A stretch of DNA of 64,000 bases from Myxococcales bacterium (GTDB lineage Bacteria; Myxococcota; Polyangia; Nannocystales; Nannocystaceae), in NCBI GenBank assembly GCA_016793465.1, contig JAEUJW010000090.1, positions 241,548 through 305,547 of the forward strand, read 5' to 3'. The position numbers and the translations under genes were made by a program. Positions within the stretch are counted from its first letter, which is position 1. Every line of letters starts with the position of its first letter. Of this stretch, positions 11,700 to 61,107 are shown one piece after another. Below the pieces are notes generated by a model that ran no database searches, was not told the origin of the DNA, and was given only the letters and a program-made list of their open reading frames with translations.

Positions 11700-12908
11700 A
11701 TGCGCGCTCAAGCGTCCCTCGCCTGCCTCATGCTCGCGGCCTGCGGCGCCGAGCCGATCGGTTCGTCCGCGACCAACCAGACCGAGGCCGCGAGCATCAG
11801 CACCGACGTCGGCACCACCGCCGACGCGCCGACCACCGACGCGCCGACCGACGGCAGCGGCGACGCCTCGGCCACCGCCGACGCGCCGACGAGCGCGCCC
11901 GCGTCCACCGGCGAGCCCGCGACCACCGACGCGACCACGAGCGAGCCGACCACCGGCGACCCCACCGGCGAGCCGACGCCCGGGGCCTTCTGCGAGCCCG
12001 TCCCCGCCTGCGACGCCCCGCCGCCGACGCTGCCCGGGCAGGAGCCCGAGTCGAGCGGCTACTCGCGCGGCCGCGACATGTTCTACGTCGACGGCGAGCC
12101 GCAGTGGGTGCTCGGCAAGTTCACCAAGTGGGGCTTCCCCGCCGACAAGGACATCGTCGGCGGCACCGTGCACGTGTTCCTCGACCGCGACTGCGCCGGC
12201 GAGTGGGTGGAGCTCGGCACCACCGTCACCACCGACGACGGCGACCACCCGATCGTCGAGGGCGTCGAGGACTCGGGCGGCCGCGTGTACTTCGAGATCC
12301 CCGCCGACCAGGCGCTCGCGCTCGGCCGCCACCGCGTCTACATGATCGAGGACAGCGAGTGGGAATCTGCCGAGCTGCTGATCGACGTCGTGCCCGCGGG
12401 CGCCCCGTTCTTCATCAGCGACGTCGACGGCACGCTGACGACCTCCGAGAACGAGGAGGCCTGGGACTTCCTCAACGACACCCTGCCCGACGCCAACCCG
12501 TTCGCCGCCGAGGCCCTGTCGCTGCTCGCCAGCAAGGGCTACCGCCCCGGCTACATCACCGCCCGCCCCGAGTGGCTCGACCGCCGCACGCGCGAGTTCC
12601 TGGCCACCCGCGGGTTCCCCCGCGGCATCATGCACACCACCCTGATCTACGAGGGCGCGATGGGCGACTCGGCCGCGCTCTACAAGAGCGGGGAGTTCGC
12701 CCAGCTGCGCCAGAAGGGCCTGGTGCCCGCGTGGGTGTTCGGCAACAAGGACAGCGACGCGCTCGCCTTCGACAACGCGATGATCGATCCGCCAGATCAC
12801 CGCGTGTTCTTCCAGTACACCGACGCGACCTACGGCGGCCGGCGCATCGACAGCTACGAGGAGCTGCTCGCCGAGTTCGAACTCCTGCCCGACCTCTGCG
12901 ACCCGTGA
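11700..12908 (+). CDS. Lipoprotein with LNS2/lipin-type HAD phosphatase domain
   Basis: A 402-aa protein. The lipobox (LAAC, Cys15) is followed by an about 80-residue Thr/Asp/Ala-rich stalk with repeated TTDAPT-like units. After a beta-rich linker comes a HAD domain with the catalytic motif DVDGTLT (Asp241 and Asp243), then GYRPGYITARPEWL, and FGNKDSDALAF as the later acidic motif. This layout resembles the LNS2 domain of lipin phosphatidate phosphatases and PITP proteins. As a secreted, anchored form it could act on phospholipids or another phosphate ester outside the cytoplasm. The substrate is unproven. TAACCT lies 9 bases before the ATG. Its stop overlaps the GTG of the next gene. Confidence 0.8.
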   Translation: MRAQASLACLMLAACGAEPIGSSATNQTEAASISTDVGTTADAPTTDAPTDGSGDASATADAPTSAPASTGEPATTDATTSEPTTGDPTGEPTPGAFCEPVPACDAPPPTLPGQEPESSGYSRGRDMFYVDGEPQWVLGKFTKWGFPADKDIVGGTVHVFLDRDCAGEWVELGTTVTTDDGDHPIVEGVEDSGGRVYFEIPADQALALGRHRVYMIEDSEWESAELLIDVVPAGAPFFISDVDGTLTTSENEEAWDFLNDTLPDANPFAAEALSLLASKGYRPGYITARPEWLDRRTREFLATRGFPRGIMHTTLIYEGAMGDSAALYKSGEFAQLRQKGLVPAWVFGNKDSDALAFDNAMIDPPDHRVFFQYTDATYGGRRIDSYEELLAEFELLPDLCDP

Positions 12909-13414: not shown

Positions 13415-14785
13415 TCACTCGTAGTCGACGCGGAACGGGCTGCCGCGGTCGCTGGGGGCGAAGCGCTCGCGTCCGAGGCGCTCGCGCAGGCACTCGAGCA
13501 CCGCCGGGTCGGCCGTCTTGCGCACCTCGCGGGCCGCGTCGACGCGCGTCACCTCGCCGCTCGGTCCGACGTCGACCCACAGGCGGATCGGCGCGCCGCA
13601 GGCCCGCAGCTCGGGCACGATGCCCTGCACCTGCGCCTGCGCGGCCACCACGTCGAACGGCCGCGCCGGCACGAACGCCCGCATGACCAGCGCGGCCACC
13701 AGCGTCGCCCCGATCGCCAGCGCGATCGTGCCGAGCGGCCAGCCCCGGCGCCGCGGCTCGACCCGCCGGGTGTCGGCGAACGGCAGCACCTCGCTCGGCA
13801 CCTCGCTCGCCGGCGCGGACGCGGCCGCCGCGACCTCCGTCGGCGCCGGCGCCAGCGCGTCGACCTGCTCGCGCCGGGTCGTCGCCTCCTCGTCGCGCGT
13901 CGTCACCTCCGACAGCCAGCGGTCGATCGACGGCGCCCCCGGCAGCGTCGCCGCCACCGCCTCGGCCAGCGCCCGCATGCCCGGGTAGCGCGCGCCGCGG
14001 TCCTTCTCCAGCGCCCTCAGGATCACCGCCTCGACCGCCGCCGGGATGTCCCGCTCCGGCGCTCGCCGCCGCGGCGGCTCGACCGGCTCGTACATGTGCT
14101 GGGTCAGGATGGCGACGTAGCCCTCGTCGACGAACGGCGCCGTGCCGGTCAGCAGCTTGTACATGAGCACGCCGACCGCGTACACGTCGGCGCGCTCGTC
14201 GGCCGCGAGCCCCTGCGGCAGCTCCGGCGCCATGTACTCCGGCGTGCCGAGCAGCGCCCCGGTGGTCGAGCGGATGCCGTCGGGCCCCGCGAGCACCTTG
14301 GCGATGCCGAAGTCGAGCACCTTGATAAAGTCGCGGTTGCCCCCCCCGCGCACGCGGAAGCAGTTCGACGGCTTGATGTCGCGGTGGATGATCCCCCGCG
14401 CGTGCGTCGCCGCCAGCCCCGCGCAGATCTGCATGACCATCGGACCCAGCCGCGACCACGGCAGCGGACCCTCGCGCCTCAGCAGCGCCTTCAGGTCCTC
14501 GCCCTGCAGCAGCTCCATCACCAGGAACACCCCGCCGTCGCCGGTCGCCCCGAAGTCGGTCACGTCGACCACGTTGGGGTGGTCGACCGCGGAGATGGCC
14601 CGCGCCTCCTGCAGGAAGCGCTGCACCGCCTTGGGGTTGCCCACGTACTCGCCGTGCAGCACCTTGACCGCGACCGCCTTGCCGAGCTTGGTGTCCTCGG
14701 CCAGGTACACCGCCGCCATCCCGCCCTCGCCGAGCGGCTGGCTCAGGCGGTAGCGCTGCTCGAGGAGGTGCCCCGACCGGTCCAT
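13415..14785 (-). CDS. Transmembrane Ser/Thr protein kinase with TonB-like C-terminal domain
   Basis: A 456-aa Hanks-type kinase. The kinase domain has the glycine loop LGEGGMAAVY (from 18), Lys41 in VAVKVL, HRDIKPSN (His134-Arg-Asp136) and DFGIAK, so it should be active. A Pro/Ala/Ser linker and one membrane helix (about 345-366, LGTIALAIGATLVAALVM) lead to a periplasmic domain, PELRACGAPIRLWVDVGPSGEV, that resembles the TonB-C/AgmX-like module of other myxobacterial proteins. The ATG at 14785 is preceded by TATATC at a 9-base distance. It lies just downstream of the beta-helix lipoprotein array on the same strand; whether it is linked to them is unknown. Confidence 0.9.
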   Translation of the reverse strand: MDRSGHLLEQRYRLSQPLGEGGMAAVYLAEDTKLGKAVAVKVLHGEYVGNPKAVQRFLQEARAISAVDHPNVVDVTDFGATGDGGVFLVMELLQGEDLKALLRREGPLPWSRLGPMVMQICAGLAATHARGIIHRDIKPSNCFRVRGGGNRDFIKVLDFGIAKVLAGPDGIRSTTGALLGTPEYMAPELPQGLAADERADVYAVGVLMYKLLTGTAPFVDEGYVAILTQHMYEPVEPPRRRAPERDIPAAVEAVILRALEKDRGARYPGMRALAEAVAATLPGAPSIDRWLSEVTTRDEEATTRREQVDALAPAPTEVAAAASAPASEVPSEVLPFADTRRVEPRRRGWPLGTIALAIGATLVAALVMRAFVPARPFDVVAAQAQVQGIVPELRACGAPIRLWVDVGPSGEVTRVDAAREVRKTADPAVLECLRERLGRERFAPSDRGSPFRVDYE

Positions 14786-14914
14786 CCACCGGCCGATATA
14801 CCCCACGCGCCGACCGCCGCCAACGTGCGCATACACGCGGCGCCGGCACCGACGAGCGACGGCGCCGGTGCGATGGCTGCATCGCGCCGGCGCCGGTGCG
14901 GCGTCAGGCCCGCG
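14786..14914 (-). repeat. GGCGCC-centred inverted repeats, probable terminator of the lipoprotein array
   Basis: Between the last array gene and the kinase start there are three copies of a CCGGCGCCG-like palindrome (about 14837, 14859 and 14890 on the plus strand). Two of them enclose a small hairpin, GCGATG-CAGC-CATCGC. This could fold into a large GC stem and reduce read-through into the kinase gene. There is no U tract, so intrinsic termination is uncertain. Confidence 0.45.
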
Positions 14915-16453
14915 TCACGGCGACGGGACGTCGGCGCCCGGCCAGTCGCTCGCGCCGTCCATGTTCGGGCGCGGCTCGAGGTCGAAGTCGTGGTCGGGGT
15001 CGCCGTTCTTCCACACCGCGAAGTCCTTGATCGCCGCGTCGGACTTGACCTTGTAGATGCCCTGGGTCGGCGCGTCGAAGAACACCGCGATGTCCTGGAA
15101 GGTCGCCGACATGTTGGTGTCGCCGTCCATCGCGCCCTCGTCGAGCACCGAGTTGTTGAACGTCCCCGTCAGGCAGTCGACCGACGGCAGGGCGAACGCG
15201 ATGATGACCGAGTTGCGGATGTCGGCCGTGCTGTCGTCGGTGCAGTGCAGCGAGCGCGGGCCCGACATGCTGAGGTTGTTGATCACCGTCGAGTACAGGA
15301 GCGTGAGCTGGTTCATCTGCGCGCTGCGGATGCCGCCGAACTCGCCGAAGTTCTGGGTGCCGTTGCCGCTGATGTAGCTGTTGACGATCGTGGTCGTCCC
15401 GCCGTACGAGGCCACGCCGCCGCCGTCGTTGTCGAAGAACACGCTGCGGTGGAACTCCGAGGTGCACTCGGTCGAGTTGTAGCCCTGCTGCTTGTTGCCG
15501 GCGAAGCGCACGTCGTCGCCGCGGACCATGCCGCCGCCGCAGGTCACGCCCGGGAACGCGTCGTTGCTGTTGAACGACAGGCGGTCGAGGTACACCTTCG
15601 AGCCCGCGCCGATCTTCAGGGTCTCGCCCGAGTCGTCGGTCGCCCGCAGCTTCGGCACGCCGTCCCAGCCGCTCATCGTGACCTGCACGCCGTCCGGCAG
15701 GACCAGCGGGGTCTCGATGTAGTTGTTGGCCCGGATCTTGACCGTCCACACCGGCGCGAGGTCGGTCGCGACCTTGTTGGTGATCGCCTCGGTCACCGAG
15801 CAGTACGGCAGCGACATGGTGCCGTCGGCGGAGGCGCAGTCGGCCGCCAGCTTGTCGACCCACACCGTGTAGTCGGTCGGGTTGCAAGCGCCGGTCTCGA
15901 AGTTGCACGAGCTCGCCGGGCAGTCGGCGTGCTTGCCGCAGCCCACGCACTCGTGGGACGCCGGGTCGCACACCGGGGCGCTGCCGTCGCACTGGCTGCT
16001 GTCGGTGCACTTCACGCACTCGCCTTCGAGGCAGTATGGCGCGTCGCCGATCTCGCCGCAGGCCGCGTCGCCGTCCGGCGTGCCCGCGCAGTTGACACAC
16101 GCGTCGTCGACGCAGAACGGGGTGGCCGCGTCGCACGCGTCGTCCGCGGTGTCGGCGGTGCAGACCGGACCGGGGCCGGTGCTCGAGGTGTCGGTCGACG
16201 GCATCGTCGCGGTCGTGTCGGTCCCCTGCGACTCGCTCTCCGACACGCCCATGGTCGTGTTCGAGGTCTCTTCGGTCCCCTCGGTCGGGTTGGACGGCGT
16301 GCTGCTCTGGGTGAGCGAGCTGTCGCCGCTCGAGCTCGAGCTCTCGCCCTCGGACTCGCTGTCCGTGGTGCCCTCCGTGGTGTTGCCGCCGGGCGGCGGG
16401 CAGGCGGCGAGCAGGAACGAGGAGGCGATGAATGCGGACCGGAAGTTCTTCAT
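14915..16453 (-). CDS. Cys-rich beta-helix surface lipoprotein, array member A
   Basis: A 512-aa lipoprotein. Order of parts: signal peptide with lipobox LAAC, a Ser/Thr/Glu-rich stalk to about residue 105, a cysteine-rich zone of short modules (PFCVDDACVNC, PYCLEGECVKC, PVCDPASHECVGC), then the conserved entry GACNPTDYTVWVD and a right-handed beta-helix-like region with NSYISGNG, LLYSTVINN and DIRNSVII rungs. It ends with GDPDHDFD...GAD, a C-terminal block found in all five array proteins. It is the only member of the four sharing the ATACTG promoter that also has a leader (34 bases) and a ribosome binding site (AGGAACC). A function in adhesion or polysaccharide binding is possible from the fold but not shown. 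Confidence 0.85.
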   Translation of the reverse strand: MKNFRSAFIASSFLLAACPPPGGNTTEGTTDSESEGESSSSSGDSSLTQSSTPSNPTEGTEETSNTTMGVSESESQGTDTTATMPSTDTSSTGPGPVCTADTADDACDAATPFCVDDACVNCAGTPDGDAACGEIGDAPYCLEGECVKCTDSSQCDGSAPVCDPASHECVGCGKHADCPASSCNFETGACNPTDYTVWVDKLAADCASADGTMSLPYCSVTEAITNKVATDLAPVWTVKIRANNYIETPLVLPDGVQVTMSGWDGVPKLRATDDSGETLKIGAGSKVYLDRLSFNSNDAFPGVTCGGGMVRGDDVRFAGNKQQGYNSTECTSEFHRSVFFDNDGGGVASYGGTTTIVNSYISGNGTQNFGEFGGIRSAQMNQLTLLYSTVINNLSMSGPRSLHCTDDSTADIRNSVIIAFALPSVDCLTGTFNNSVLDEGAMDGDTNMSATFQDIAVFFDAPTQGIYKVKSDAAIKDFAVWKNGDPDHDFDLEPRPNMDGASDWPGADVPSP

Positions 16454-16488
16454 GGTTTCAGGTTCCTAGACGATCTTTACGCCCGCGC

Positions 16489-16517
16489 AGTATTCCCTGC
16501 ATCGCCAACCTTGTCCA
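16489..16517 (-). promoter_or_regulatory. Promoter of array gene A (TGGACA-N17-AATACT)
   Basis: On the minus strand, TGGACA (16517-16512) is followed after 17 bases by AATACT (16494-16489). The -10 is embedded in GGAATACTG, which recurs upstream of three other array genes. The start codon is 35 bases further and has an AGGAACC ribosome binding site at 16467-16461. Confidence 0.7.
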
Positions 16518-16721
16518 CCGCGCGGCGCGAACGGCCGTTTTCCGGACGTGCACCGGCAAACCTGGCCCCGAGGACTGGTCGGAAAATTATCTTCGCGGCC
16601 TTTCGTCCGCGGAGGTCCGACCCCGCCGCGCCGTCGAGCACGCAACTGCACGCACGCGATCGCGTCTCGCGTGGGGACGCCCGACCCCGACCGCCGCGAC
16701 GCCGGCCCGTCCGCAGGGCCG

Positions 16722-18293
16722 TCAGTCCGACACGCGATCGGCCCCGGCGAAGTCGGGAGAATTCTCGCCGCTCGGCCGCGGGTCGCCGTCGAAGTCGATC
16801 TCTGGGTCGCCCGCCTCCCAGGTCGCCAGCTGATCGAGGGCGGTGCCCTCGATCGCGCGATAGACCCCGGGGAGCTGGGGATCGGGCGTCAGGTACATCG
16901 GCATCTCGGGGAACGTGATGCTGATGTTGTCCATGCCCGGCATCCCGTCCTTCGCCGTCCAGCCGGTCCGCTGGATGGTCGAGCCGTCGCACAGGGTGCT
17001 GTTGCCCTTGTTGATCGCCACCGAGTTGCGCACGAACACCGACTCGATCGCCGGGTCGCCGTCTTCGTTGCAGGCCACCGAGAAAGGGCTGCCCGCGACC
17101 GCGAGGTTGTCGATGAACGAGGTGTAGACCGCCTCGAGCGCGGCGCCGCTGGTCAGGTAGACCCCGCCCGCGCCGTCGCCGGTGTTGCCGTTCGACGAGA
17201 TGTACGAGTTCTCGATGTGGATCGCCCCGCTCGACACGTAGGCCCCCGACAGCGTGTTGCCGGTCAGGACGCTGCGCCGCAGCTTCACATCGCAGTCGAC
17301 AGTGGCGATGCCGTGGCCGGTGACCCCGGAGACGCTGAGACGATCGAGCCAGAGCTTGCCCGCGCTGCACGACAGCGCGTCGCTGCCGCCGCTGGTCACG
17401 CCGATCCCGTCGAGCAGCAGGGCGCCGCCGGTCGCCACCTCGAACGCCCGCGAGCCGGCCACGGCCGCCAGCGTGACCGGCGGATCGTCGTCGCCGCCGG
17501 TCGCGTGGACGACCGCGACGAGCCCGTCCTCGGGGATCGCCAGCGACGCGTCGATCTCGTAGGCGCCCGCGCGCACGCGGATCGCGTGGCCCTCGCCCGG
17601 CGCCGCCTGGACGCGCGTGAAGGCCGCGCCGAGCGTGCACAGCGGGGCGTCCGGCGTGCCCGCCGCGGCGTCGTCGCAGGCGCCGGCCATGTCGACCCAC
17701 AGGGCCGCGGCCACCGGCATGCAGGCCCCCGTCCACAGGTCGCACGCGCTGCCCGAGCACTGGTCGTGCGCGGTGCACTTGCCGCACGTGTGGGCCTCGG
17801 GGTCGCAGACCGGGTTGGCGTCGTCGCAGGCGCAGACGTCGCAGAGGCCGGAGTTCTGGTTGCACACCGGCTCGCCCGGCGAGACCGCGGCGCACTCGAT
17901 GCCCGAGCAGTCGACGCACTCGCCGGCGAGGCAGTACGGCTGGCCCGAGGGGCACGCCGGATCGACCGAGCCGCCGCCGCCGGGGTCGCACTCGCTGGCC
18001 GCCGTGGTCTCGCCGACGTCGCTCGAGGTCGTCGGATCGACGCCGGTCGAGCTCGACCCGGTCTCGCCGGTCGCCGTCTCGTCGGGCACGCAGCGGTTCG
18101 AGGCGCAGACCAGGCCCTCGTCGCAGGCGTTGCCATCGGTGCACAGGCAATTGAGGCTGCCGATCGGGCAGCCGGTCTCACCCCCGCTCTCGCTCGCGGT
18201 GCCCTCGTCGCCCGGCAACGGCCCGGTGCACGCCGCACCGAGCAGCGCACCGGCGCCGAACAGCAGGAAGGCGAACCAGGAGGAGGAGGCCAT
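16722..18293 (-). CDS. Cys-rich beta-helix surface lipoprotein, array member B
   Basis: A 523-aa lipoprotein. The ATG at 18293 gives a good signal peptide (ASSSWFAFLLFGAGALLGAAC) with the lipid Cys in GAAC. The stalk is shorter than in A and is interrupted by cysteine modules (CPIGSLNCLCTDGNACDEGLVC). The second Cys-rich zone ends in SACDLWTGACM, and the beta-helix region carries IENSYISSNG, AVYTSFIDN and VRNSVAIN rungs. The end is GDPEIDFDGDPRP...DFAGAD. An upstream in-frame ATG exists, but it would place the signal peptide 45 residues inside the protein. The role is unknown. Beta-helix plus cysteine modules suggests a stable extracellular binding or adhesive protein. Confidence 0.85.
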   Translation of the reverse strand: MASSSWFAFLLFGAGALLGAACTGPLPGDEGTASESGGETGCPIGSLNCLCTDGNACDEGLVCASNRCVPDETATGETGSSSTGVDPTTSSDVGETTAASECDPGGGGSVDPACPSGQPYCLAGECVDCSGIECAAVSPGEPVCNQNSGLCDVCACDDANPVCDPEAHTCGKCTAHDQCSGSACDLWTGACMPVAAALWVDMAGACDDAAAGTPDAPLCTLGAAFTRVQAAPGEGHAIRVRAGAYEIDASLAIPEDGLVAVVHATGGDDDPPVTLAAVAGSRAFEVATGGALLLDGIGVTSGGSDALSCSAGKLWLDRLSVSGVTGHGIATVDCDVKLRRSVLTGNTLSGAYVSSGAIHIENSYISSNGNTGDGAGGVYLTSGAALEAVYTSFIDNLAVAGSPFSVACNEDGDPAIESVFVRNSVAINKGNSTLCDGSTIQRTGWTAKDGMPGMDNISITFPEMPMYLTPDPQLPGVYRAIEGTALDQLATWEAGDPEIDFDGDPRPSGENSPDFAGADRVSD

Positions 18294-18302
18294 GGTGGGC
18301 CC

Positions 18303-18332
18303 AGTATTGCCCGAAGCTCCGCGCCATGACAA
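18303..18332 (-). promoter_or_regulatory. Promoter of array gene B (TTGTCA-N18-AATACT)
   Basis: On the minus strand, TTGTCA (18332-18327) and AATACT (18308-18303) are separated by 18 bases. Only 9 bases lie between the -10 and the ATG, so the transcript would start at or next to the start codon. No Shine-Dalgarno sequence is present. Confidence 0.68.
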
Positions 18333-18523
18333 CGCAGGCGTGCGTGATCGAGTGCGCGCGAGCGCGCAAATACCGGCCCCGATCGCCCGCTCTACATGAC
18401 CCGCCACAGCAATTTCCTTCATCACACTCGTCGCCTCCGCGGCGACATCGGCGGTACCCCTGCGAGGCGCTCGCAGCGGCCGGAGCAGCCCGCCTCAGGC
18501 AGATCCTACGCCGCGGCACGTCG

Positions 18524-20101
18524 TCAATTGGGACGGTCGGCGCCGGAGTAATCCATCGTGCCATCCGCGGTGATCCGCGTGTCGCCGTCGTAGTCGACCG
18601 ACGGATCGCCGACCCGCCAGGTGGCCACGTCCTGGAACGGCATGCCCGGCTTGATCGAGAAGTCCCCCATGGCCGGGTTGTTGAACCACGACGGCACCAG
18701 CATGGTCTCGTACTGCACGTTGGTGCCGGTCAGCGACATCGCGTCGACCACGCTGTCCTTGGCGGTGGCCGTCGGACAAATGACCGAGGTGTTCGCCGCC
18801 TTGCCGAACAGGATCGAGTTGCGCAGGCTCACGGGCCCCGGGGTCTGGCAGTGCAGCGACTCCCCCACCCCGCCCATCGCGTCGTTGTCGGCGATCGTCG
18901 AGTAGACGATGTCGACCGCCGCGCTCGAGCCGACGTGGACCGCGGAGATCGAACCGAACGAGTTGCCGTTCTGCACGATGTACGAGTTCTCGATGCGGGT
19001 CTCGCCGCCGCTGAGGCGCAGCCCGCCGGCTTTGTTCTCGTAGAGCTTCGAGCGGCGCAGGATCACGTCGCACTCGTCGCCCTGGATGGCGTAGCCGTCG
19101 CGCTTCTCGATCGTCACCTGGTCGAGCCAGACCTTGGCGAGGTTGGTGCAGCGGAGCGCGGGGATCGCCGCGCCGCCGGTGATGGTGATGTTCTCGAGGA
19201 ACGCCAGGGCCCCGTTGTTGACGACCACAGCGTCGAGGTTGGGCACCGCCAGCGTGACAGTCCCGGTGTTGCCGTCGCGGACGATCGCCACCGTCTTGCC
19301 CGAGGCGACCTGGACCTGGTTCTTGTACGGCGTCTGGCTGGTCCGCACGCGCACGACCAGCGGCTGGTTCTGGACCTTGTCGACCGCCTGCTGGATCTCG
19401 CACAGCGGCAGCTCCATGCTGCCGGTCCCGGCGGCGCAGGTCGCCCCCTGGTCGACGTACAGGATCGACGCGAAGCACGCGCCGGTGGCGAAGTTGCAGG
19501 CCCCGCTGTCGCACTCGCTGTGGGCCGTGCAGGCCACGCAGGTGTTCAGCGAGCCGCACACCGGGGTGTTGCCCTCGCACGCGCTGGTGTCCTCGGCCGT
19601 GCACACCACGCACTTCCCGCTGGCCTCGTCGCACACCGGCGCCACGTCGGAGATGTCGCTGCAGCTGGCGATGCCCGTGCAGTCGACGCAGGTGCCGCCC
19701 GGCTCGCAGTACGGCTTCTGCGGGTCGTCGCACATGGCGTTGGCCACGCCCTGGGCCGGGTCGCACTCGGTCCCGGCCGTCTCCGACTGGCCCGTCGAGT
19801 CCCCAGTGGGACCGAAGGTGGTCCCCGGTTCGCTGGTGGTGCCCGTCGAGGACTCTCCTTCCGTCGTGCTCGACGTCGACGTCGTCCCCTCGCTCGCGGG
19901 CGTGCACAGGCGCGAGGCGCACACGAGACCCGGGCCGCAGTCGCTGTCGTCCATGCAGAAGCAGTTCTCGCCGCCCATGCAGTCGCCGGTCTCGGCCGGG
20001 GTCGCCGACGAGTCCTGGCCCGGTCCCGGATTGCACGCACCCGCGACCGCCACCCCCACGCCGAACCCGAGACTGCAGAAATACCGGGGAATTCGCGTCA
20101 C
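18524..20101 (-). CDS. Cys-rich beta-helix surface lipoprotein, array member C
   Basis: A 525-aa lipoprotein with lipobox in VAVAGAC. A CFCMDDSDCGPGLVC module precedes the Thr/Ser-rich stalk, and after it come PYCEPGGTCVDC, PVCDEASGKCVVC, PVCGSLNTCVAC and SACNFATGACF. The beta-helix rungs include IENSYIVQNG, IVYSTIADN and LRNSILFG. The last block is GDPSVDYDGD...DYSGAD. The GTG at 20101 was chosen because it gives the signal peptide directly and lies 7 bases after the shared AATACT box. An upstream TTG would place that box inside the coding region. The gene is monocistronic in appearance. Confidence 0.83.
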   Translation of the reverse strand: MTRIPRYFCSLGFGVGVAVAGACNPGPGQDSSATPAETGDCMGGENCFCMDDSDCGPGLVCASRLCTPASEGTTSTSSTTEGESSTGTTSEPGTTFGPTGDSTGQSETAGTECDPAQGVANAMCDDPQKPYCEPGGTCVDCTGIASCSDISDVAPVCDEASGKCVVCTAEDTSACEGNTPVCGSLNTCVACTAHSECDSGACNFATGACFASILYVDQGATCAAGTGSMELPLCEIQQAVDKVQNQPLVVRVRTSQTPYKNQVQVASGKTVAIVRDGNTGTVTLAVPNLDAVVVNNGALAFLENITITGGAAIPALRCTNLAKVWLDQVTIEKRDGYAIQGDECDVILRRSKLYENKAGGLRLSGGETRIENSYIVQNGNSFGSISAVHVGSSAAVDIVYSTIADNDAMGGVGESLHCQTPGPVSLRNSILFGKAANTSVICPTATAKDSVVDAMSLTGTNVQYETMLVPSWFNNPAMGDFSIKPGMPFQDVATWRVGDPSVDYDGDTRITADGTMDYSGADRPN

Positions 20102-20416
20102 GCCGGGCAGTATTCCAGAGGGCCATCGCAACAATCAATGCAGCGTTCCGCGCACCAACCGCCCGTTGTCTCCATCGAAAGAAGTGTGCACAAGTGCACC
20201 ATTGTTACGCGACGTCATACGGCGACGCGCGCCGCCGTCACCCGCCCGGGCGCCGCGCGCCTCGCCGGCGCGTGACGCACGAGCGCCCGCGCCGCGCGAG
20301 CCGGACGCGTCGCCGCGCCGCCCGCCGCCGACGAACGCGCGCGAGGCGTCGTATCGCGCCACGGACGAACCGGGGCGCGCGGCCCGCGAGCGCGACGCGG
20401 ATGCGGTCGCTAGCCC
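20102..20416. other. Intergenic region between array genes C and D
   Basis: This 315-base gap carries the promoter of gene C at its left end. It has a noticeably less GC-rich centre (20130-20225). A tandem GTGCAC-AA-GTGCAC dyad at 20186-20199 could be a protein-binding site. The right half is an arginine-codon-like GC-rich run with no protein signature. No gene was recognised. Confidence 0.45.
20109..20138 (-). promoter_or_regulatory. Promoter of array gene C (TTGATT-N18-AATACT)
   Basis: On the minus strand, TTGATT (20138-20133) is followed after 18 bases by AATACT (20114-20109), within the same GGAATACTG core as gene A. Seven bases separate it from the GTG start codon. It is leaderless-type and lacks a ribosome binding site. 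Confidence 0.66.
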
Positions 20417-22171
20417 CTAGTCCTCGGGGAAGTAGTCGGCGCCGGCGAAGTCGGCCATGCCGTCGAAGGCGTTGCGATCCTGGCGCTCGAAGTCCTGGCG
20501 CGGGTCGCCGTAGCGCCACACCGCACGGTCGCGGAACTCCTCGGCGGCCATGATGTTGGGGATGCGGTAGGTGCCGTCGTTCGAGCTGGGGAACAGCGAC
20601 ATCAGGATGGTCTCGGCGGCCAGCTTGTGGTTGTTGCCCTCGTTGCCGAAGTCGCCGTCGACCACCGAGTTGCTGACGCTGATCTGGCCCTCGGCGCACA
20701 CGATGCTGTTGTTGCCGGTGTTGGGGCCGTGGGCGAAGATCGAGTTGCGGATGTCGAGGGTGACCGGGCCGTCGCAGTGCACGGTGTCGCCCTCGCCGGT
20801 CAGCATCGTGTTCACGTTGTTGGCCAGCGTGCTGTACACGACCTCGGCCACAGCCCCGCCCGACATGCGGATGCCGCCGCCGCCGAATTCCTCGTTGCTG
20901 CCGTTCTCGTCGATGAAGCTGTTGAGCATCTGCAGGCTGCCGCCGTTGATCTCGATGCCCTCGCTGCGGCCGAAGGCGATCGAGGAGCGGCGCAGGTGGA
21001 TGTCGCAGCCGTTGGCGCGGATGCCGGGCCCGCGCGAGTACAGCACGCGCGAGTCGTCGAGCCAGATCTCGGCGTCCTCGTTGCAGCTGATGCCGAAGTG
21101 GCCGTCGACCCAGGCCATGTTCTCGACCCGCACGGTGAAGTCGACCATGTACAGGCGGACGCCGCTGTTGACCGTGACCACCGGGCCGAACCCGAGGAAC
21201 GTGGTGTGCGTGTCGAACAACGTCCCGGGCTCGTGGACCATCGCGTAGGCGAGCTGGGTGTCGCCGCCGCCGGACATCGAGAACGGCGACTGGTCGATGT
21301 TCGCCTTGCTCGACATGATCACGAACGTCCAGCCGCTGGTCTTGCCGGCGATCTGCGCCGAGGCGATCGCCGTGGCCATGTCGCAGTAGGGGTTGCCGGG
21401 GCCGCCGCCGGTGTTGACGTCGAAGGTGCACGGCTGGTTCGGCGCCGGTCCGTAGCGCACGTAGAGCACGCGGTCCTGCGGGAAGCACTTGCGCTGCTTG
21501 ACGTCGCAGGCGGTGCCCGGGCACTCGCTGTGCTCGAGGCAGCCCTCGCAGGTGTACTTGTCGAGGTCGAGGTTGCAGTGCGGGCGCTCCTCGTCGCACT
21601 GGCCGGCCTCGATCGCGTTAGTCGCGTTGCACTCGACGCAGGCGCCCGCGTTCTCGCCGTCCATCTGGCAGATCGGGCGCAGCGTGGTGGTCGCGTCGGC
21701 GCACTGCTTGTCGGACTTGCAGGCCACGCAGGCCCCGTCCTCGCAGAACGGGCGGGTCCTGTCGGCCTGCTTGCAGTCCTTGTTCTCCTCGAGCGTGCCT
21801 TCGTCGACGCACTCGGGCGGCGCGACCGTCGTCTCCTCGCCGCTGGTCTCGCCCTCGCTGGTGCCGGTCTCGCCGCTGGCGCTGGCCGTCGTCTCGCCGC
21901 TGGTGCTCGCGCTCGCGTCCGCCGCCCCCTGCTCGCACACGAGCGACTCGTTGCACACGAGCCCCGGATCGCACGCCCCGCCCCCGGTGCAGGGACAGCC
22001 GTTCATGCCGACGGGACACGGTTCCGTGCCCGTCGTCGACGACGACCCCGGCCCCGTGTCGCTGCTCTCCCCGTCGTCGATCGGCGGCGAACTCTGCTCA
22101 CAGGCCATCAGTCCAACCCCGAGCACGACAGCGGCGCAAGCTGAGAGACGAGGGCGTGTGGGACGAATCAC
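20417..22171 (-). CDS. Cys-rich beta-helix surface lipoprotein, array member D
   Basis: At 584 aa this is the longest array member. The lipobox is LMAC followed by EQSS. Next are a CPCTGGGACDPGLVC module, a Ser/Thr/Glu stalk, and the Cys zone (PFCEDGACVAC, then CMECHAC-like spacings ending SECPGTACDVKQRKCF). The beta-helix region has MLNSFIDENG, VVYSTLANN and DIRNSIFAHG rungs and an insertion around WTFVIMSSKAN not seen in the others. It ends GDPRQDFERQ...DFAGAD. The GTG at 22171 lies six bases after the GATACT box. Like its neighbours it should be outer-membrane anchored, with no Asp at +2. The function is unknown. Confidence 0.83.
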   Translation of the reverse strand: MIRPTRPRLSACAAVVLGVGLMACEQSSPPIDDGESSDTGPGSSSTTGTEPCPVGMNGCPCTGGGACDPGLVCNESLVCEQGAADASASTSGETTASASGETGTSEGETSGEETTVAPPECVDEGTLEENKDCKQADRTRPFCEDGACVACKSDKQCADATTTLRPICQMDGENAGACVECNATNAIEAGQCDEERPHCNLDLDKYTCEGCLEHSECPGTACDVKQRKCFPQDRVLYVRYGPAPNQPCTFDVNTGGGPGNPYCDMATAIASAQIAGKTSGWTFVIMSSKANIDQSPFSMSGGGDTQLAYAMVHEPGTLFDTHTTFLGFGPVVTVNSGVRLYMVDFTVRVENMAWVDGHFGISCNEDAEIWLDDSRVLYSRGPGIRANGCDIHLRRSSIAFGRSEGIEINGGSLQMLNSFIDENGSNEEFGGGGIRMSGGAVAEVVYSTLANNVNTMLTGEGDTVHCDGPVTLDIRNSIFAHGPNTGNNSIVCAEGQISVSNSVVDGDFGNEGNNHKLAAETILMSLFPSSNDGTYRIPNIMAAEEFRDRAVWRYGDPRQDFERQDRNAFDGMADFAGADYFPED

Positions 22172-22177
22172 GAACCC

Positions 22178-22206
22178 AGTATCCCGAGGGGCGCGATTCG
22201 CCGCAA
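22178..22206 (-). promoter_or_regulatory. Promoter of array gene D (TTGCGG-N17-GATACT)
   Basis: On the minus strand, TTGCGG (22206-22201) is followed by a 17-base spacer and GATACT (22183-22178). Six bases then lead to the GTG start. The GGGATACTGGG context matches the other array promoters. Confidence 0.65.
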
Positions 22207-22375
22207 CAGGTATCGTAGCTGTACTTTTTGTTTGCCGGCTTACACCGCTTGCATGACCAACGATGACCCACCCGATCCTACAGATGGGGCTGCGTCACCT
22301 GGAGTCGACGCCCGCAGCCAGGAGCCGCGCGGCCCACACTGAACACGCTATCAGAAATCGTCTCGTTGCGGCGAG

Positions 22376-24055
22376 CTACGGGACGTCTGCACCTGCATAG
22401 TCCTTGTTCATCTCACCGGCGGGGCGCTTGTTCGGGCTGTCGAAGTCCTCGCGCGGGTCTCCGTCCTTCCACTCGGCCACGTCCTTCAGCTTGCCGCCCG
22501 TCTGCGCCCGGATCACGCCCTGCTGGATGGAGGCCGCGACCATGTCGGAGATCAGCGCCTGGATGGTGGCGTACTTGCCGGTGAAGTTGTTGAGGTCCTC
22601 CTTCAACGTGCACGTGGTGGCCTTGTCGCCGGCGTAGGCGATGAAGGAGTTGCGGATGCCCACGGTGTTCGAGGCATTGGTGCACGTGATCGGCGCGACG
22701 GTGCCGCTGTTGAGCGCCAGGGTCGAGTAGAGGATGTCGGCGCTCGACCCGTTGGTCACGTTGAGCCCGTGGATCGTGCCGTTGCGGGTGATGAAGCTGT
22801 TCTCCATGAACAGCTTGGCCTGGTTGGTCAGGGTCACCGCGCCGGTGACGGTGTCGTAGATCACCACGCGGCGGTAGTGATTGACGCAATTGTCGGCGCG
22901 GATGCCGACCTTGGAGTTGTAGACCCGCACCTCGTCGAGCCACACCGTGGCCGCCTTGCAGTCGATCATGACGTTGGTGTTGATCGGCATGATCGGGTTG
23001 TACATGCTGATCTTGTGCACGTAGACCCGCGCGCCTCCGGAGGCGTACAGCGCGGACTCGGGGCCGTTGCGGGTGAGCAGCACGTTGTCGCTGCCGATGC
23101 CGATGAGCGCCACGTCGGACGCCGTGGTCACGGCGTTGAACTCCGACTGCAGGCCGACGCCCGGGCGCACCTTGATCGTCAGCGGCTTGCCCGGCATCGC
23201 CCGCGCGAACGCGTAGCTGAGCAGGCACAGCGGCTCCTCTTCGGTGCCCGGGTTGTTGTTGTTGCACAGCACCGGGGCGCCGGTGGTGTTGTCGACCCAC
23301 ACGACGTTGTCGGCCGGGAAGCACACGCCGTCGTCGAGGTTGCAGGCGGTGCCCGGGCCGCCCGCCTCCTCGCTGCAGTGCTCGTGCATCGAGCACTTCT
23401 TGCAGGTGGCGGAGTCGGGGTCGCAGTACGGCGCCGACTCGCTGCAGTCGCCGTTGTCGACGCACTGCACGCACTGGCCGGTCTCCTCGACGCAGGCCGG
23501 CTTCTCGGGGTCGACCTGGGCGCAGGGGACCTGCGTGCACGACACGCACTCGGTCTCGACGCAGTAGGGCGTCGGCTGGGCGCACTGGTCGTTGCCGAAT
23601 TCGGGGTCGCAGCCCCGCATCTCGGTGGTGTTCGTCGAGTCGGTCATCGGATCGGTGGTCGACGTCGTGGTCGACGTGCCGGTGTCGTCCGAGGTGACGG
23701 TGAGCGTGACGTCCATGGTCGTCGGCTCGCTCGACGTCGGGAACGTCGGGCTCGACGTCGTGGTCGACGTGTCGCTCGGGCCCGCCGTCGTCGGGGCGGT
23801 GGTCGACGTCACCGTCTCGCTGGTCCCGGTGGTCGAGCCGCCGAACAGGCACGCGGTCTCGATCACGTCGGGCGCGACGCAGCCGTTGTTGTCGGCCGCA
23901 CACATGCTGCACATCAGGCCCTCGCCGCACGCCCCGGCGTTGAGCGAGCAGTGCGACTCGTTGGTGAACGGGCAGCCGAGCAGCATGCCTACCCCGGCGG
24001 CCGCGACGACGGTGAATAAAGAACGGGGCGCGAACCGAAAGCCAGAGTTTTTCAT
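22376..24055 (-). CDS. Cys-rich beta-helix surface lipoprotein, array member E
   Basis: A 559-aa lipoprotein with lipobox LLGC. An N-terminal Cys module (CSLNAGACGEGLMCSMC) is followed by a long Thr/Ser stalk (about residues 65-145) and the Cys zone with PYCVETECVSC, PACVEETGQCVQC and PYCDPDSATCKKC. The beta-helix rungs include MENSFITRNG, ILYSTLALN and GIRNSFIAY, and the end is GDPREDFD...DYAGAD. Unlike genes A-D it has no ATACTG box. It starts 49 bases after the stop of the gene upstream and has a GGAG ribosome binding site, so it may be co-transcribed with that gene. Confidence 0.84.
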   Translation of the reverse strand: MKNSGFRFAPRSLFTVVAAAGVGMLLGCPFTNESHCSLNAGACGEGLMCSMCAADNNGCVAPDVIETACLFGGSTTGTSETVTSTTAPTTAGPSDTSTTTSSPTFPTSSEPTTMDVTLTVTSDDTGTSTTTSTTDPMTDSTNTTEMRGCDPEFGNDQCAQPTPYCVETECVSCTQVPCAQVDPEKPACVEETGQCVQCVDNGDCSESAPYCDPDSATCKKCSMHEHCSEEAGGPGTACNLDDGVCFPADNVVWVDNTTGAPVLCNNNNPGTEEEPLCLLSYAFARAMPGKPLTIKVRPGVGLQSEFNAVTTASDVALIGIGSDNVLLTRNGPESALYASGGARVYVHKISMYNPIMPINTNVMIDCKAATVWLDEVRVYNSKVGIRADNCVNHYRRVVIYDTVTGAVTLTNQAKLFMENSFITRNGTIHGLNVTNGSSADILYSTLALNSGTVAPITCTNASNTVGIRNSFIAYAGDKATTCTLKEDLNNFTGKYATIQALISDMVAASIQQGVIRAQTGGKLKDVAEWKDGDPREDFDSPNKRPAGEMNKDYAGADVP

Positions 24056-24104: not shown

Positions 24105-25151
24105 TCAGAAGCGGCCGGACCAGGATAGACCGTAAACGCCGGCGCCAGCCACCGGGGCGACCTGGGTGCGTCGCTTCTTGGCGCCGAGCCCGAGCAACGC
24201 GCCGCCGACCGCCGCGAGCGCGATGCCGGTGACGAGCACGCCGATCCCGGGCGTGCGCCAGTTCAAGAGCTCCGCGCCGTTCATGGCGTCGGGCTGCGAG
24301 GTGTTCTTGCCGATGAAGACCGCGCCCGTGATCACCCCGCCGAGCCCCGCCGCGACCAGGATGCCCCCGCCGATCATCATGCCTCGCCCGGCGTTGCTCG
24401 GGGCCGTCGTCGTCGGGATGTCCTTGCGCGGCACGCACTTCTTGATGACCGGATGGCAGGCCGGACCGTTGCTGTTGCCGCCGCAGTCGGCGTCGGTGGC
24501 GCACTCGTCGGCGGCCACGCACTGCTTCAGCTGCTTGCTGCACTTCGGCAGCGCGGGGTCCTTGCAGCTCGCGTCGCTCTCGCAGCTCGCCGGCCCCGTG
24601 GGCTCGCACGGCTTGTTGTTGAAGTCGGCGACGTAGGCCCGCAGCTTGGGGGTCAGCGCTCGCGTGGCCCCGACGATCTTCTCGAGCAGCTCGCTCTCGG
24701 TGCACAGCGGGCACTCGCCGACCGAGCTGCCGTCCTTGATCGGGCGCAGCTCGCCGTGGTTGATGTCGACGGTGTAGTGGAAGCCGCCGTCGTCGCCGGG
24801 CAGCGGCTCCAGCTTGACGTACAGCACAGGGGTGTCCTGACCGTCGCCCGCGCCCATGATGTCGTTGCGCTTCAGCTCCTCCTCCGCCTTGACGCGCAGG
24901 CGCGGCGCGATGCCCTGGCCGTCGGGGCCGAGCTTGGCGGCGTCGACCTCCACGCGGGCCCGGTAGTCGAGCTTCGGACAGGCGGCCTTGCCCCCCGCGG
25001 CCGGCTCCGCCGACTTCGCGGCCGGCTTGCCAGCCGGCTCCGCGGGCTTCGCCGACGGCCCCGCCGCGGGCGCCGAGACGAAGGGCGCCTGGGTCAGCGC
25101 GGTCACGGGCGAGAAGACGAGCGAGAGGGCGAGCGTGTTGGCGACGAACAT
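24105..25151 (-). CDS. Secreted Cys-containing protein with C-terminal membrane hairpin
   Basis: A 348-aa protein. The N-terminus is a signal peptide (ALSLVFSPVTALTQA) followed by a Pro/Ala/Lys-rich linker. The middle domain is unrecognised and has a CPLC pair and a later Cys-rich part (CESDASCKDPALPKC, CATDADCGGNSNGPAC). Near the C-terminus two hydrophobic helices (GILVAAGLGGVITGAVF and VLVTGIALAAVGGALLG) are separated by a short loop and followed by KKRR and a GLSWSGRF end. This helix-pair plan occurs in other myxobacterial envelope proteins. It sits between the dual kinase gene and the lipoprotein array. The function is unknown. Confidence 0.72.
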   Translation of the reverse strand: MFVANTLALSLVFSPVTALTQAPFVSAPAAGPSAKPAEPAGKPAAKSAEPAAGGKAACPKLDYRARVEVDAAKLGPDGQGIAPRLRVKAEEELKRNDIMGAGDGQDTPVLYVKLEPLPGDDGGFHYTVDINHGELRPIKDGSSVGECPLCTESELLEKIVGATRALTPKLRAYVADFNNKPCEPTGPASCESDASCKDPALPKCSKQLKQCVAADECATDADCGGNSNGPACHPVIKKCVPRKDIPTTTAPSNAGRGMMIGGGILVAAGLGGVITGAVFIGKNTSQPDAMNGAELLNWRTPGIGVLVTGIALAAVGGALLGLGAKKRRTQVAPVAGAGVYGLSWSGRF

Positions 25152-25353: not shown

Positions 25354-28209
25354 TCACCCGGTCTCGGCGCGCCGCTCACACAGGCGGACCATCTTGACCA
25401 CATCGGGATCGGTCAGGCCCCTGCCCGCGCGCGCGCAGTCCCTGAACTTGCCGAGTTCCATGAACGCCTTGGTCCGCAGCTTGGCGTGCTCCTGCTTCTT
25501 CCAGCAGTCCTTCTCGTTGAGCAGGCGGTTCATGTCGTGCCACTTGCCGTCGTCGCGGGCCTTGGCGACCTTGTCGCGGTTGGCCTTGCACTGATCGCTG
25601 TTGTAGTCGGCCTTCGGCTTGATGACCTCGACCTTCTTCGGCTTGGTGTCGCCGGTGTCGCCGGCGGTCTCGCCCGCGGAGTCGTTGGCCGTGTCGGCGG
25701 CGCTGTCGGTGGTCGGCGGGTCGACGACGGTCTTGATCGGGTCGGGCTGCTTCTTGATCGGGTCGGGCTGCTTCTTGATCGGCGGCTTCACGTCGGGCTC
25801 GTTGACGTCGACCGGCTGGGTTGTGGTGTTGCTGGCCGTCTTGGGGTCATCGCCCGGGCCGGGGCCGCCGGCCACGGCGATGTACAGCAGCACGGCGCAG
25901 GCCACGACGATGCCGGCGATGCCGAGCTTGCGGCCGGTCTCGTAGGGCAGCGTGACCGGGCGGACCTCCTGCACCAGCGGCACCGCGGGCCCGACCTTCG
26001 GCCCCGAGGGCTGCTGCTTGCGGGGGTGCGGCCCCGAGGTCGTCGTCGGCGCCGGCATCGCCGTGCCGATCATCGAGGCCTCCGAGTCGCCCATGTTGTC
26101 GCCGTCGGCGGGCAGGCCGCGGATGCACTCCTCGAGCTTCTGCAGGAACTCGCGGGCCGACTGCGGGCGATCGCCGGGGTCGATCTCGAGGCAGGCGTCG
26201 ACCAGCGCGACCAGGTTCTTCGGCAGGTCGCCGCGGCGCTCGCCGAGCGACGGCGCCTTCTCGGTCGACTTGCGGGCCATGATCTCGACGAGGTTGTTGG
26301 AGACGAACGGCGGCTCGCCGACCAGCACCTCGTAGAGCATCACGCCGAGCGCGTAGACGTCGAACAGCTCGGTGGCGTCCTTGCCCTTGGCCTGCTCGGG
26401 CGCCATGTACTCGGGGGTGCCGAGCGCGTGGCCGGGGACGGTGAGGCGGGCCTCGGCCTCGGTCCGCTCAGCGCCGGCGGAGATGCCGAAGTCGAGGACC
26501 TTGACCGTCTCGCCCTCGCCCTCCGGGAGCGGCACGAACATCACGTTGTCGGGCTTCAGGTCGCGGTGGATGATGCCGACGTCGTGGGCGGCGCGGATGG
26601 CCCGGGCGACCGCGCGGATGATGCGGCAGGCCCGTCCGACCGGCAGCGTGCCGAGGTCCTGGATCTCGTCGTAGAGATTGCGACCGGTGAGGTACTCCAT
26701 CACCAGGTAGAGGCGACCGTCGGGCAGCTGCCCGGCGTCGAACACCTCGATGATGTTGGGGTGACCCGCGGCCGAGGCGGCGCGGGCCTCGGCCCGGAAG
26801 CGCTTGGCGACCAGCTCGCTGCGGCTCCACTGGTGGGTCAGGACCTTGATGGCGACGCGGCGACCGACGGTCGTGTGCTCGCCGAGGTACACCGTGCCCA
26901 TGCCGCCGCGGCCGATGCGGCTGACCACGCGGTAGCGGTCGGCGATGATGGTGCCCGACTCGATGTGCTCGATGTCGTTCTGCGGGTTCTCGGGGCCGGC
27001 GTCGTCCTTGTTGCGCGGGCGCCTCGGCGCGGCGGCGGCGGCGGGGCTGCGCTCGCCGGCCCCGCGATCGAGGCGATCGGGGCGCTCGGCGTGGGGGATG
27101 ATCTTCATGTTGGCGCGGCTGGTCGCCGACACCTCGTCGTCCTCGTCCGACAGCGAGAGCTCGAACTCTTCCTCGTCGCCGAGCGTGTCCTTGTTCGACC
27201 CCTCGCCGCGCGACGGCGACGGCAGGGCGGTGTGCGACAGCTCGGCGAGGATCTGCTCGCGGTTCTCGCGCTCGCGCACCGCCGCGTCGCCGAACAGCAT
27301 CGCCATGAACTCGGAGACCTGCTCGGTGCCGGTGTTGCCGGTCACGCCGCGCTTCGCCAGCCAGCCGCCGAGCGCCTCCATGAAGTCGTGGGCCGAGAGG
27401 TAGCGGTCCTCGCGATCGCGGGCCAGCGCCTTGCCGACGATCGCGTCGAGCTCGCTGTCGACGCGGCTGCTGTAGCTGCTGGCCAGCGGCGCGTTGAAGT
27501 TCGAGACGTCCTCGGTGTCGACGCCGTCGCCGCCGCGCAGGGGTCGACCGGTCAGCAGCTCCCACAGCACGGCGCCGCAGGCGTACACGTCGGCGCGGCC
27601 GTCGAGGATCTCGTGGCGGGCCTGCTCGGGCGACATGTAGCCGACCTTGCCGAACACCACGCCGGGCACGGTGAGGCTGCCCTTCAGCGCCGAGGTCGCG
27701 AGCCCGAAGTCGGCGAGGCGGACCACGCCGGTCCAGTCGATCAGGATGTTCGAGGGCGAGACGTCGCGGTGGACGAGGCCGAGTCCGGGGAAGGTGTGCG
27801 CGTAGTGCAAACCTCGCAGGATCTCGTGGATGATGTGGACTGCGAGGGGGACCGGGAACGCCTTGCCGACCGCGGCGCAGCGGTCCCAGATGTCGGCGAG
27901 GTCGCGGCCCTCGACGAGCGTCATGACGATGAACAGCTGTTCGTCGAGGTCGCCGGCCTCACGCACCTCGACGATGTTCTGGTGGTGCAGGCGCAGCACC
28001 AGCTTGGCCTCGTCCTTGAAGCGCGTGCGGTAGTCGTGGTCCGGCAGACCCGGTCGCAGCAGCTTGACGGCGACGAGCCGAGCCGACGCGCCGGAGCCGC
28101 TCGAGGCCAGGTAGACCGTGGCCATCCCCCCCTCTCCAAGCACCGCGAGCAGGCTCATGCTGCCCAGCGGGCGCGGGGGATCCAGTCGCTCGATCTCGCC
28201 CATGACCAT
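25354..28209 (-). CDS. Dual-domain Ser/Thr protein kinase with membrane anchor
   Basis: A 951-aa protein with two complete Hanks-type kinase domains. Domain 1: glycine loop [10 protein letters not shown], Lys49, HRDVSPSN (147-154), DFG 167-169. Domain 2: [10 protein letters not shown], Lys455, HRDLKPDN (548-555), DFG 573-575. An acidic/basic linker (about 330-415) joins them. A single membrane helix (about 762-780) is followed by a Thr/Asp/Pro-rich stalk with two IKKQPDP units and a small C-terminal domain with three Cys. Both domains look catalytically competent. ATGs at 28209 and 28203 are both possible starts. TAGCGT lies 12 bases before the first. The DUF4388 gene is divergent from it. 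Confidence 0.9.
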
Positions 28210-28266
28210 GGTCTGGCCCAAACGCTACCACGACTCCGGCAAATCCGAGTATCCTTTGCTGCATCC

Positions 28267-30606: not shown

Positions 30607-30636
30607 GGGGTGCCTCCTGTCGCGCGGGCGCGGGGA

Positions 30637-32274
<1,638 letters not shown>

Positions 32275-33210: not shown

Positions 33211-33220
33211 GAGTAGTCTT

Positions 33221-34762
<1,542 letters not shown>

Positions 34763-34795
34763 GGGTGCCTCTTCACTGCGGCCGTGCGGCCAAAA

Positions 34796-60896: not shown

Positions 60897-61107
60897 ATCA
60901 ACCGACCTCGACTGGCATTGTCCCATCGCCCCGCGGCCGTGTCACAAGCGGCCCGCGCTTTGCCACAGCCGCCGGCAGAGCGCCGCATCGACGGGTCTCA
61001 CGCGGCCTCGCCGTGGCTCGACGTCAGCGACTGCGGCGCTCGACGCAGCCTCGCGTGGCTCGACGTCGGCGAGCCCATGCCGACCTCCGCATCTCGCGGC
61101 CCGCGCC

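What the first reader, a model, noticed from the sequence alone, without database searches (positions are those of the whole stretch)
14915..24055. Tandem array of five paralogous beta-helix surface lipoproteins
Five consecutive genes encode the same order of parts: lipobox, Ser/Thr stalk, cysteine modules, the GAC...VWVD-type entry, helix rungs (NS[YF]I..NG, [LV]YS[TV]..N, [IV]RNS) and a GDP..D[FY]...GAD end. The end block and rungs are conserved while the stalks and cysteine modules vary in length and sequence. That is what is expected if the stalk and Cys zone diversify while a common anchor and folding unit is kept. This could be a species-specific surface recognition, adhesion or predation system.
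Basis: partly seen in the sequence, partly recalled or inferred. Interest (0 to 1): 0.75.

Follow-up and report, generated by a model that had tools for sequence, protein, structure and literature searches.

The report
Kinase-linked beta-helix surface lipoprotein array
Five neighbouring genes make related disulphide-rich, beta-helix lipoproteins that come as a fixed set in Nannocystis soil bacteria and sit behind a distinctive membrane protein kinase, which suggests a surface-to-cell signalling unit rather than a strain-specific recognition array.

Summary
In detail: five tandem minus-strand genes encode homologous lipoprotein-like proteins; the one modelled is a right-handed beta-helix. The interpretation needs changing. 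(1) Not species-specific: six of six Nannocystis isolate genomes carry the same five genes in the same order, and each position forms its own supported clade. (2) The cysteine zone does not diversify: 16 cysteines in 47 of 47 aligned homologues, with lower dN/dS than the helix in all five genome pairs. The stalk has the highest dN; no segment has dN/dS above 1. (3) The array is part of a larger cassette: Ser/Thr kinase(s) with an extracytoplasmic four-cysteine tail, an exported two-helix protein (P), then lipoprotein(s). The tail was found in 28 of 29 genomes of the family and in none of 275 other sampled Myxococcota genomes, and has no Pfam match. Of 80 assessable tails, 60 have P directly behind and 41 a beta-helix lipoprotein within 4 kb. 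(4) In the window the last four genes each have a promoter-like GNRATACTS element near the start. Best reading: outer-membrane sensors or adhesins coupled to a family-specific trans-envelope kinase. Function is inferred, not shown.

The parts
25354..28221 (-). Double Ser/Thr protein kinase (955 aa): two Pkinase domains, one hydrophobic segment (about residues 767-785), extracytoplasmic C-terminal tail
   Evidence: Two PF00069 stretches, 295 bits; hydropathy and tail domain
25363..25602 (-). Kinase tail domain with four invariant cysteines (C..CW..C..C)
   Evidence: Alignment A6; 28 of 29 family genomes; 7 of 282 sampled Myxococcota, all 7 family members; no convincing Pfam match in 4 tails
24105..25151 (-). 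P protein (P0006, 348 aa): signal-like N-terminus, alpha/beta domain (residues 60-180), Cys-rich linker, two hydrophobic helices, SGRF end
22376..24055 (-). Beta-helix lipoprotein 5 (first of the array; HC..N.GAC-type early Cys module; no promoter-like element; directly behind P)
20417..22171 (-). Beta-helix lipoprotein 4
18524..20101 (-). Beta-helix lipoprotein 3 (probable GTG start at 20101; ORF open to 20134)
   Evidence: PF13229 23.9 bits, below cut-off 25.9
16722..18293 (-). Beta-helix lipoprotein 2
   Evidence: PF13229 23.1 bits, below cut-off
14915..16453 (-). Beta-helix lipoprotein 1 (last of the array; no early Cys module); modelled structure
22177..22185 (-). Promoter-like element GGGATACTG; ATACT ends 6 nt before the GTG of gene 4
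20108..20116 (-). Promoter-like element GGAATACTG; ATACT ends 7 nt before the GTG of gene 3
18302..18310 (-). Promoter-like element GCAATACTG; ATACT ends 9 nt before the ATG of gene 2 (a TTGTCA lies 18 nt before the second hexamer)
16488..16496 (-). Promoter-like element GGAATACTG before gene 1 (a TGGACA lies 17 nt before the second hexamer)
13415..14836 (-). Second Ser/Thr kinase downstream of the array; not part of the conserved cassette; 72% identical relative behind the array of L002, not behind that of L003
28327..29664 (+). Divergently transcribed DUF4388 protein, kept beside the double kinase in three sister genomes (L009-L011)

Best explanation
The five genes are a fixed set of outer-membrane lipoproteins that form the envelope end of a family-specific kinase cassette. 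Shown: each protein is built as lipoprotein-type signal, (in four) a 6-Cys module, a Ser/Thr stalk, a zone with 16 invariant cysteines, and a beta-helix capped by the end block; the set is conserved by position in Nannocystis; and this lipoprotein family is repeatedly encoded directly behind protein P and behind kinase(s) with a four-cysteine tail. Inferred: the lipoprotein sits in the outer membrane with the beta-helix held out on the stalk, where it binds a ligand (most likely a polysaccharide or another cell's surface); binding, or the folded state of the disulphide-rich base, is passed through P (TolB/PelC-like periplasmic domain plus inner-membrane helices) to the cysteine tail of the kinase, which then phosphorylates cytosolic targets. 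In the window the last four lipoproteins carry promoter-like elements of their own, so the cell could change which sensor heads are displayed.
Confidence: 0.45

Rival explanations
1. The kinase controls the lipoproteins (output model): the kinase senses envelope state through its tail and switches on a set of adhesins or prey-binding proteins; the lipoproteins do not signal.
For: In the window four of five genes have their own promoter-like element, not seen before 91 other genes, which suits separate regulation.
Against: Does not by itself explain why P stays directly upstream of the lipoproteins, as in the repeated P-lipoprotein pairs of L056.
Confidence: 0.3
2. The beta-helices are polysaccharide lyases, esterases or epimerases that degrade prey or matrix polysaccharide on the cell surface.
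Confidence: 0.12
3. Species-specific recognition array that diversifies by rapid change of stalk and Cys zone.
For: Stalk has the highest dN in all five pairs, and the helix evolves faster than the neighbours (dN/dS 0.50-0.71 against ffh 0.12-0.18). By dN alone the Cys zone is level with or slightly above the helix in two of five pairs. In other genera arrays are local duplicates, for example three near-identical copies in L013.
Against: Fixed set across Nannocystis; cysteines of the zone invariant; its dN/dS below the helix in all five pairs; dN/dS never above 1.
Confidence: 0.1

Closest known systems
Right-handed parallel beta-helix repeat proteins (Pfam PF13229 Beta_helix)
   Same: Fold; genes 2 and 3 hit the model just under its cut-off; relatives P0030 and P0046 carry the name 'right-handed parallel beta-helix repeat-containing protein'
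   Different: Added 16-Cys zone, stalk and lipobox. The precomputed PF27011 (not in the local Pfam, name unknown) seems to mark the zone: present on P0053, which has the zone and little helix, absent on P0048 and P0049, which have the helix without the zone
Rhombotarget A (PDB 9cdv, 9cdu)
   Different: Recalled, from no call: a rhombosortase substrate held by a C-terminal tag; here an N-terminal lipobox
TraA kin-recognition receptor of Myxococcus
   Same: Myxobacterial cell-surface receptor in recognition (starts of abstracts); cysteine-rich (recalled)
   Different: One polymorphic locus with partner TraB; here a fixed five-gene set beside a kinase. Strain polymorphism was not examined here
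RcsF-type outer-membrane lipoprotein sensors coupled to inner-membrane kinases (recalled)
   Same: Proposed logic: outer-membrane lipoprotein, periplasmic relay, kinase
   Different: Ser/Thr kinase instead of a histidine phosphorelay; no sequence relation tested
TolB N-terminal / PelC / CsgG / HpaA / TraT alpha-beta fold
   Different: P also has two hydrophobic helices and an SGRF end; identity 6-14%

Membership tests
Right-handed beta-helix proteins | Parallel beta-helix coil of short strands | tested here: met
   AlphaFold model of gene 1 from 47 rows and PDB matches; the other four are held to share the fold by homology
Right-handed beta-helix proteins | Pfam PF13229 match above gathering score | tested here: not met
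   Genes 2 and 3: 23.1 and 23.9 bits against 25.9; genes 1, 4, 5 no match
Bacterial lipoproteins | Signal sequence ending in a lipobox cysteine | tested here: met
   Read by eye: canonical in genes 1, 4, 5; relaxed in genes 2, 3. No signal-peptide program was on hand
Bacterial lipoproteins | Lipidation and outer-membrane location | not testable with these tools
   Needs experiment
Beta-helix polysaccharide lyases | Conserved catalytic residues | tested here: inconclusive
   No catalytic set apparent among invariant columns of 47 rows; geometry not examined
Kinase-P-lipoprotein cassette (defined here) | Kinase with four-Cys tail, P, Cys-rich lipoprotein in order on one strand | tested here: met
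   Window 28221 down to 14915
Transmembrane receptor-like Ser/Thr kinases | Cytosolic kinase domain, TM segment, extracytoplasmic domain | tested here: inconclusive
   Pkinase and one hydrophobic segment before the tail; topology itself was not measured
TraA-like recognition receptors | Polymorphic self-recognition region | not tested
   No strain-level sequences were compared

The most novel reading that the evidence does not exclude
Nannocystaceae have their own class of trans-envelope Ser/Thr phospho-signalling: a kinase with a four-cysteine tail, a TolB/PelC-like bridging protein and exchangeable disulphide-rich surface lipoproteins (beta-helix, perhaps beta-propeller, or Cys-only heads), with as many as a dozen parallel cassettes in one genome.
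Probability: 0.35. Interest if true: 0.75.

Novelty: new variant of a known kind. Interest (0 to 1): 0.55.

Why it matters
Myxobacteria have some of the largest bacterial kinase sets (start of the abstract of PMC2887360, listed), and what most of these kinases sense is unknown (general knowledge). A rare, family-specific kinase tail that recurs with one type of surface lipoprotein gives a concrete receptor-kinase hypothesis that can be tested in culturable Nannocystis strains. It also corrects the reading of the array: the disulphide zone is a constant part, and the set is old and fixed in the genus.

Tried and rejected
Species-specific array: rejected by synteny and tree. Cys zone as diversity zone: rejected. 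NCBIfam gave nothing near a cut-off for the 5 array proteins, P and 8 homologues. PDB sequence search with the beta-helix alignment: no hit; with the kinase tail: one weak hit, E 0.42, taken as chance. tRNA scan: none. Terminator scan: 5 found against 4.9 expected, uninformative. A first count of tails with neighbours (38 of 53 with a beta-helix gene) is not used as evidence because 36 of its 56 tails had been reached from the lipoproteins or lie in the window; the remaining 33 tails were then fetched and all 88 counted. In one search a loose pattern for Cys-rich lipoproteins hit 4 of 11 random places and was dropped; a stricter one missed modules plain to the eye and was widened, so the widened count (20 of 39, two of which, L098 and L102, look like chance by eye) was set after looking at the misses; its control is 4 hits in 478,315 bases. 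Literature: Nannocystis + beta-helix 0 papers; Nannocystis + kinase + lipoprotein 1 review; Nannocystaceae + lipoprotein 1 review; Plesiocystis + protein kinase + lipoprotein 1 review. Listings and starts of abstracts only; no paper was opened. 'Not in print' is claimed only for those searches of that library.

The protein search scored only the 7994 candidates with most shared words. Phylum searches scored only 5 or 19 candidates per genome, so absences outside the family are soft. dN/dS is Nei-Gojobori with Jukes-Cantor, pooled over the orthogroups, in GC-rich genes; comparative only; L003 gene 5 was left out because its N-terminal part is out of frame. Only gene 1 of the five was modelled. 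The control stretches are flanks within the fetched loci, not random genome.
Full report
What is there. Five minus-strand genes between 24055 and 14915 encode proteins of 512 to 584 aa. They are paralogues along their whole length (27-31% identity to gene 1). Segment limits and cysteine counts: early module of 6 Cys in genes 2-5, none in gene 1; stalk of 33-79 residues without Cys; zone of 90-109 residues with 16 Cys in every gene; helix part of 283-322 residues with 6 Cys in every gene; end block of 31-33 residues. In alignment A3 47 of 47 rows have 16 cysteines in the zone, and the six helix cysteines are kept in 42 of 43, 42 of 44, 43 of 45, 43 of 46, 46 of 47 and 46 of 47 rows.

Distribution. 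A protein search found 51 relatives at E <= 1e-5. One scan of genome contigs gave 8 loci, all Nannocystis. Six Nannocystis isolate genomes searched whole have 7-12 matches each, and each carries the five-gene array; a seventh, a metagenome-assembled genome (L002), is cut by its contig and shows three. In the GTDB family 28 of 29 genomes have at least one match, one of them 48 match pieces. In a sample of 282 Myxococcota 10 genomes match at 1e-15, four of them family members.

History. In a tree of 71 members the five positions of the window fall into five supported clades with the matching positions of the six Nannocystis arrays: P1 12 rows 100/99 (including one solo copy, L007), P2 8 rows 97/96, P3 11 rows 100/99, P4 8 rows 100/99, P5 10 rows 95/90. 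L002 adds genes 3, 2 and 1. Sister genomes G014, G015 and G017 have 4, 4 and 5 members; positions 1, 3 and 5 (and 4 in G017) fall into the same clades while one member of each falls outside. Other genera have their own local duplicates, for example three near-identical copies in L013. The window's genes 4 and 5 have long branches and were flagged as such. So the Nannocystis set is old and fixed; the arrays sampled in more distant genera arose separately.

Rates. Between five Nannocystis pairs, pooled over the orthogroups, dN/dS was: stalk 0.58-0.80, helix 0.50-0.71, Cys zone 0.30-0.56, end block 0.27-0.50, early module 0.10-0.37. The stalk has the highest dN in all five pairs, but in two pairs (L004-L008, L001-L008) the helix has the higher dN/dS. 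The Cys zone has lower dN/dS than the helix in all five pairs; by dN alone it is lower in three and level or slightly higher in two (L005-L008, L003-L006). Control genes in the same loci: ffh 0.12-0.18, P 0.13-0.39, kinase tail part 0.23-0.39, another kinase 0.14-0.38. Window against five of the six Nannocystis, amino-acid identity: early module 51-60%, Cys zone 49-51%, end block 47-51%, helix 37-40%, stalk 35-43%. The lipoproteins evolve fast for their neighbourhood, but the Cys zone is among the constant parts and nothing exceeds 1 by this crude measure.

The cassette, seen from the lipoproteins. Upstream of the array stand P (24105-25151) and a double Ser/Thr kinase (25354-28221). The same order was found in the six Nannocystis loci and in G014, G015 and G017. 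In other genera two adjacent kinase genes often take the place of the double kinase, though long single ORFs also occur (L057, L105). Of 89 family arrays in the loci fetched up, window included, 69 had at least 2.5 kb upstream; 36 had P directly upstream, 35 a same-strand kinase, 29 both, 28 a kinase with the tail. Against this, 33 have no P there and 34 no kinase. Loci were chosen from the listed matches, whose list was cut, so weak members are under-sampled. In G021 15 of 18 arrays have P directly upstream. L056 shows P and lipoprotein repeated as pairs.

The cassette, seen from the kinase. The kinase ends in a stretch with four invariant cysteines (alignment A6, 27 rows), preceded by a hydrophobic segment in 28 of 34 tail-bearing ORFs (three of the six without, in L004, L013 and L068, are short pieces). 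Pfam has no convincing match in 4 tails. 88 tails were found in 28 of 29 family genomes, up to 13 each, while each genome checked has well over a hundred kinases (at least 138, the scoring cap, in 5 of 5). In 282 sampled Myxococcota 7 genomes match, all 7 family members; the other 275 do not. I then looked at all 88 tails: 80 have at least 1.5 kb downstream; 60 of 80 have P directly behind on the same strand, 41 of 80 a beta-helix lipoprotein within 4 kb. Two P hits occur in 478,420 bases of the same loci that lie more than 6 kb from any beta-helix gene or tail. Of the 39 tails without a beta-helix gene, 20 have within 4 kb a hit to the pattern of a lipoprotein module (lipobox C, then HC..GD..C), against 0.069 expected per stretch, about 2.7 in all. 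13 of 80 have none of P, beta-helix or module. Each of the six Nannocystis genomes has three tails: one before the array; one with P and a small Cys-rich lipoprotein (L097, L099, L132, L135, L137, L139); and one with no beta-helix gene and no P (L096, L098, L131, L136, L138, L140). In G021 12 of 13 tails stand beside beta-helix lipoproteins, in L047 and L056 on the other strand, and the thirteenth (L113) beside a Cys-only one. So the beta-helix is one of several heads; proteins with DUF4215 and weak beta-propeller matches stand near the arrays in L013 and L015.

Transcription. GNRATACTS occurs 5 times in the 64 kb window against 1.45 expected (1 of 100 shuffles reached 5), and 4 of the 5 lie just before genes 1-4. 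In genes 2-4 the ATACT ends 6-9 nt before the start codon. In 15 loci, 19 of 44 later array genes and 1 of 12 first genes have a close variant in the tested 148 nt (5 further genes could not be placed), against 0 of 91 other genes and 402 of 60000 random stretches. The motif was taken from the window, so its own 4 of 4 are not independent; without the window it is 15 of 40. Gene 2 has it in all six Nannocystis, gene 3 in three, genes 1 and 4 in none.

Verdict. The array is real. It is a fixed set of beta-helix lipoproteins tied by gene order to a family-specific kinase and to P. That they are sensors of that kinase is my best guess (0.45), that they are its regulated output the main rival (0.3).

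Noticed in passing
L003:2932-4245: Gene 5 of the Nannocystis poenicansa FL3 array lacks its N-terminal lipobox and stalk in the open frame (437 aa against 566-582 in the other five), a broken frame or a sequencing error.
   Followed up: partly
L004:839-1402: In N. exedens DSM 71 the kinase tail lies in a short open frame of 187 aa with no kinase domain in the same frame, unlike the other five Nannocystis: a frame break or a sequencing error.
   Followed up: no
window 11700-12908 (+): Lipoprotein-like protein with PITM1-3/LNS2 domain matches, a family I know from eukaryotes (recalled); relatives in L009 and L010.
   Followed up: partly
window 28327-29664 (+): DUF4388 protein transcribed divergently from the double kinase, kept in L009-L011 and, by its sequence ends, in L105 and L108.
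   Followed up: partly
window 30190-35344 (-): Looks like an F-type ATP synthase operon (read by eye from the translations, no family search run).
   Followed up: no
window 56145-57266 (+) and 59178-60926 (-): Two further lipoprotein-like genes with Ser/Thr-rich stretches and DUF4215 repeats.
   Followed up: no
L013:5304-6944 and L015:8045-9667: Proteins with DUF4215 and weak beta-propeller matches next to beta-helix arrays: a possible alternative head in the same cassette.
   Followed up: partly
G006:C2:1790-3259 and G006:C3:38306-39775: The same extra beta-helix copy with equal scores on two contigs, perhaps one gene in an assembly overlap.
   Followed up: no
L056:7999-16699 and L114: Alternating P and beta-helix genes repeated in tandem beside a tail kinase.
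   Followed up: partly
L028, L030, L031, L032, L034: Solo beta-helix copies in Nannocystis stand directly behind a single kinase without the tail, with a P-like gene divergent from that kinase: a second, different kinase arrangement.
   Followed up: partly
homologues P0048 and P0049: Relatives with the beta-helix and end block but without the Cys zone; they also lack the precomputed PF27011, so that model probably marks the Cys zone.
   Followed up: partly
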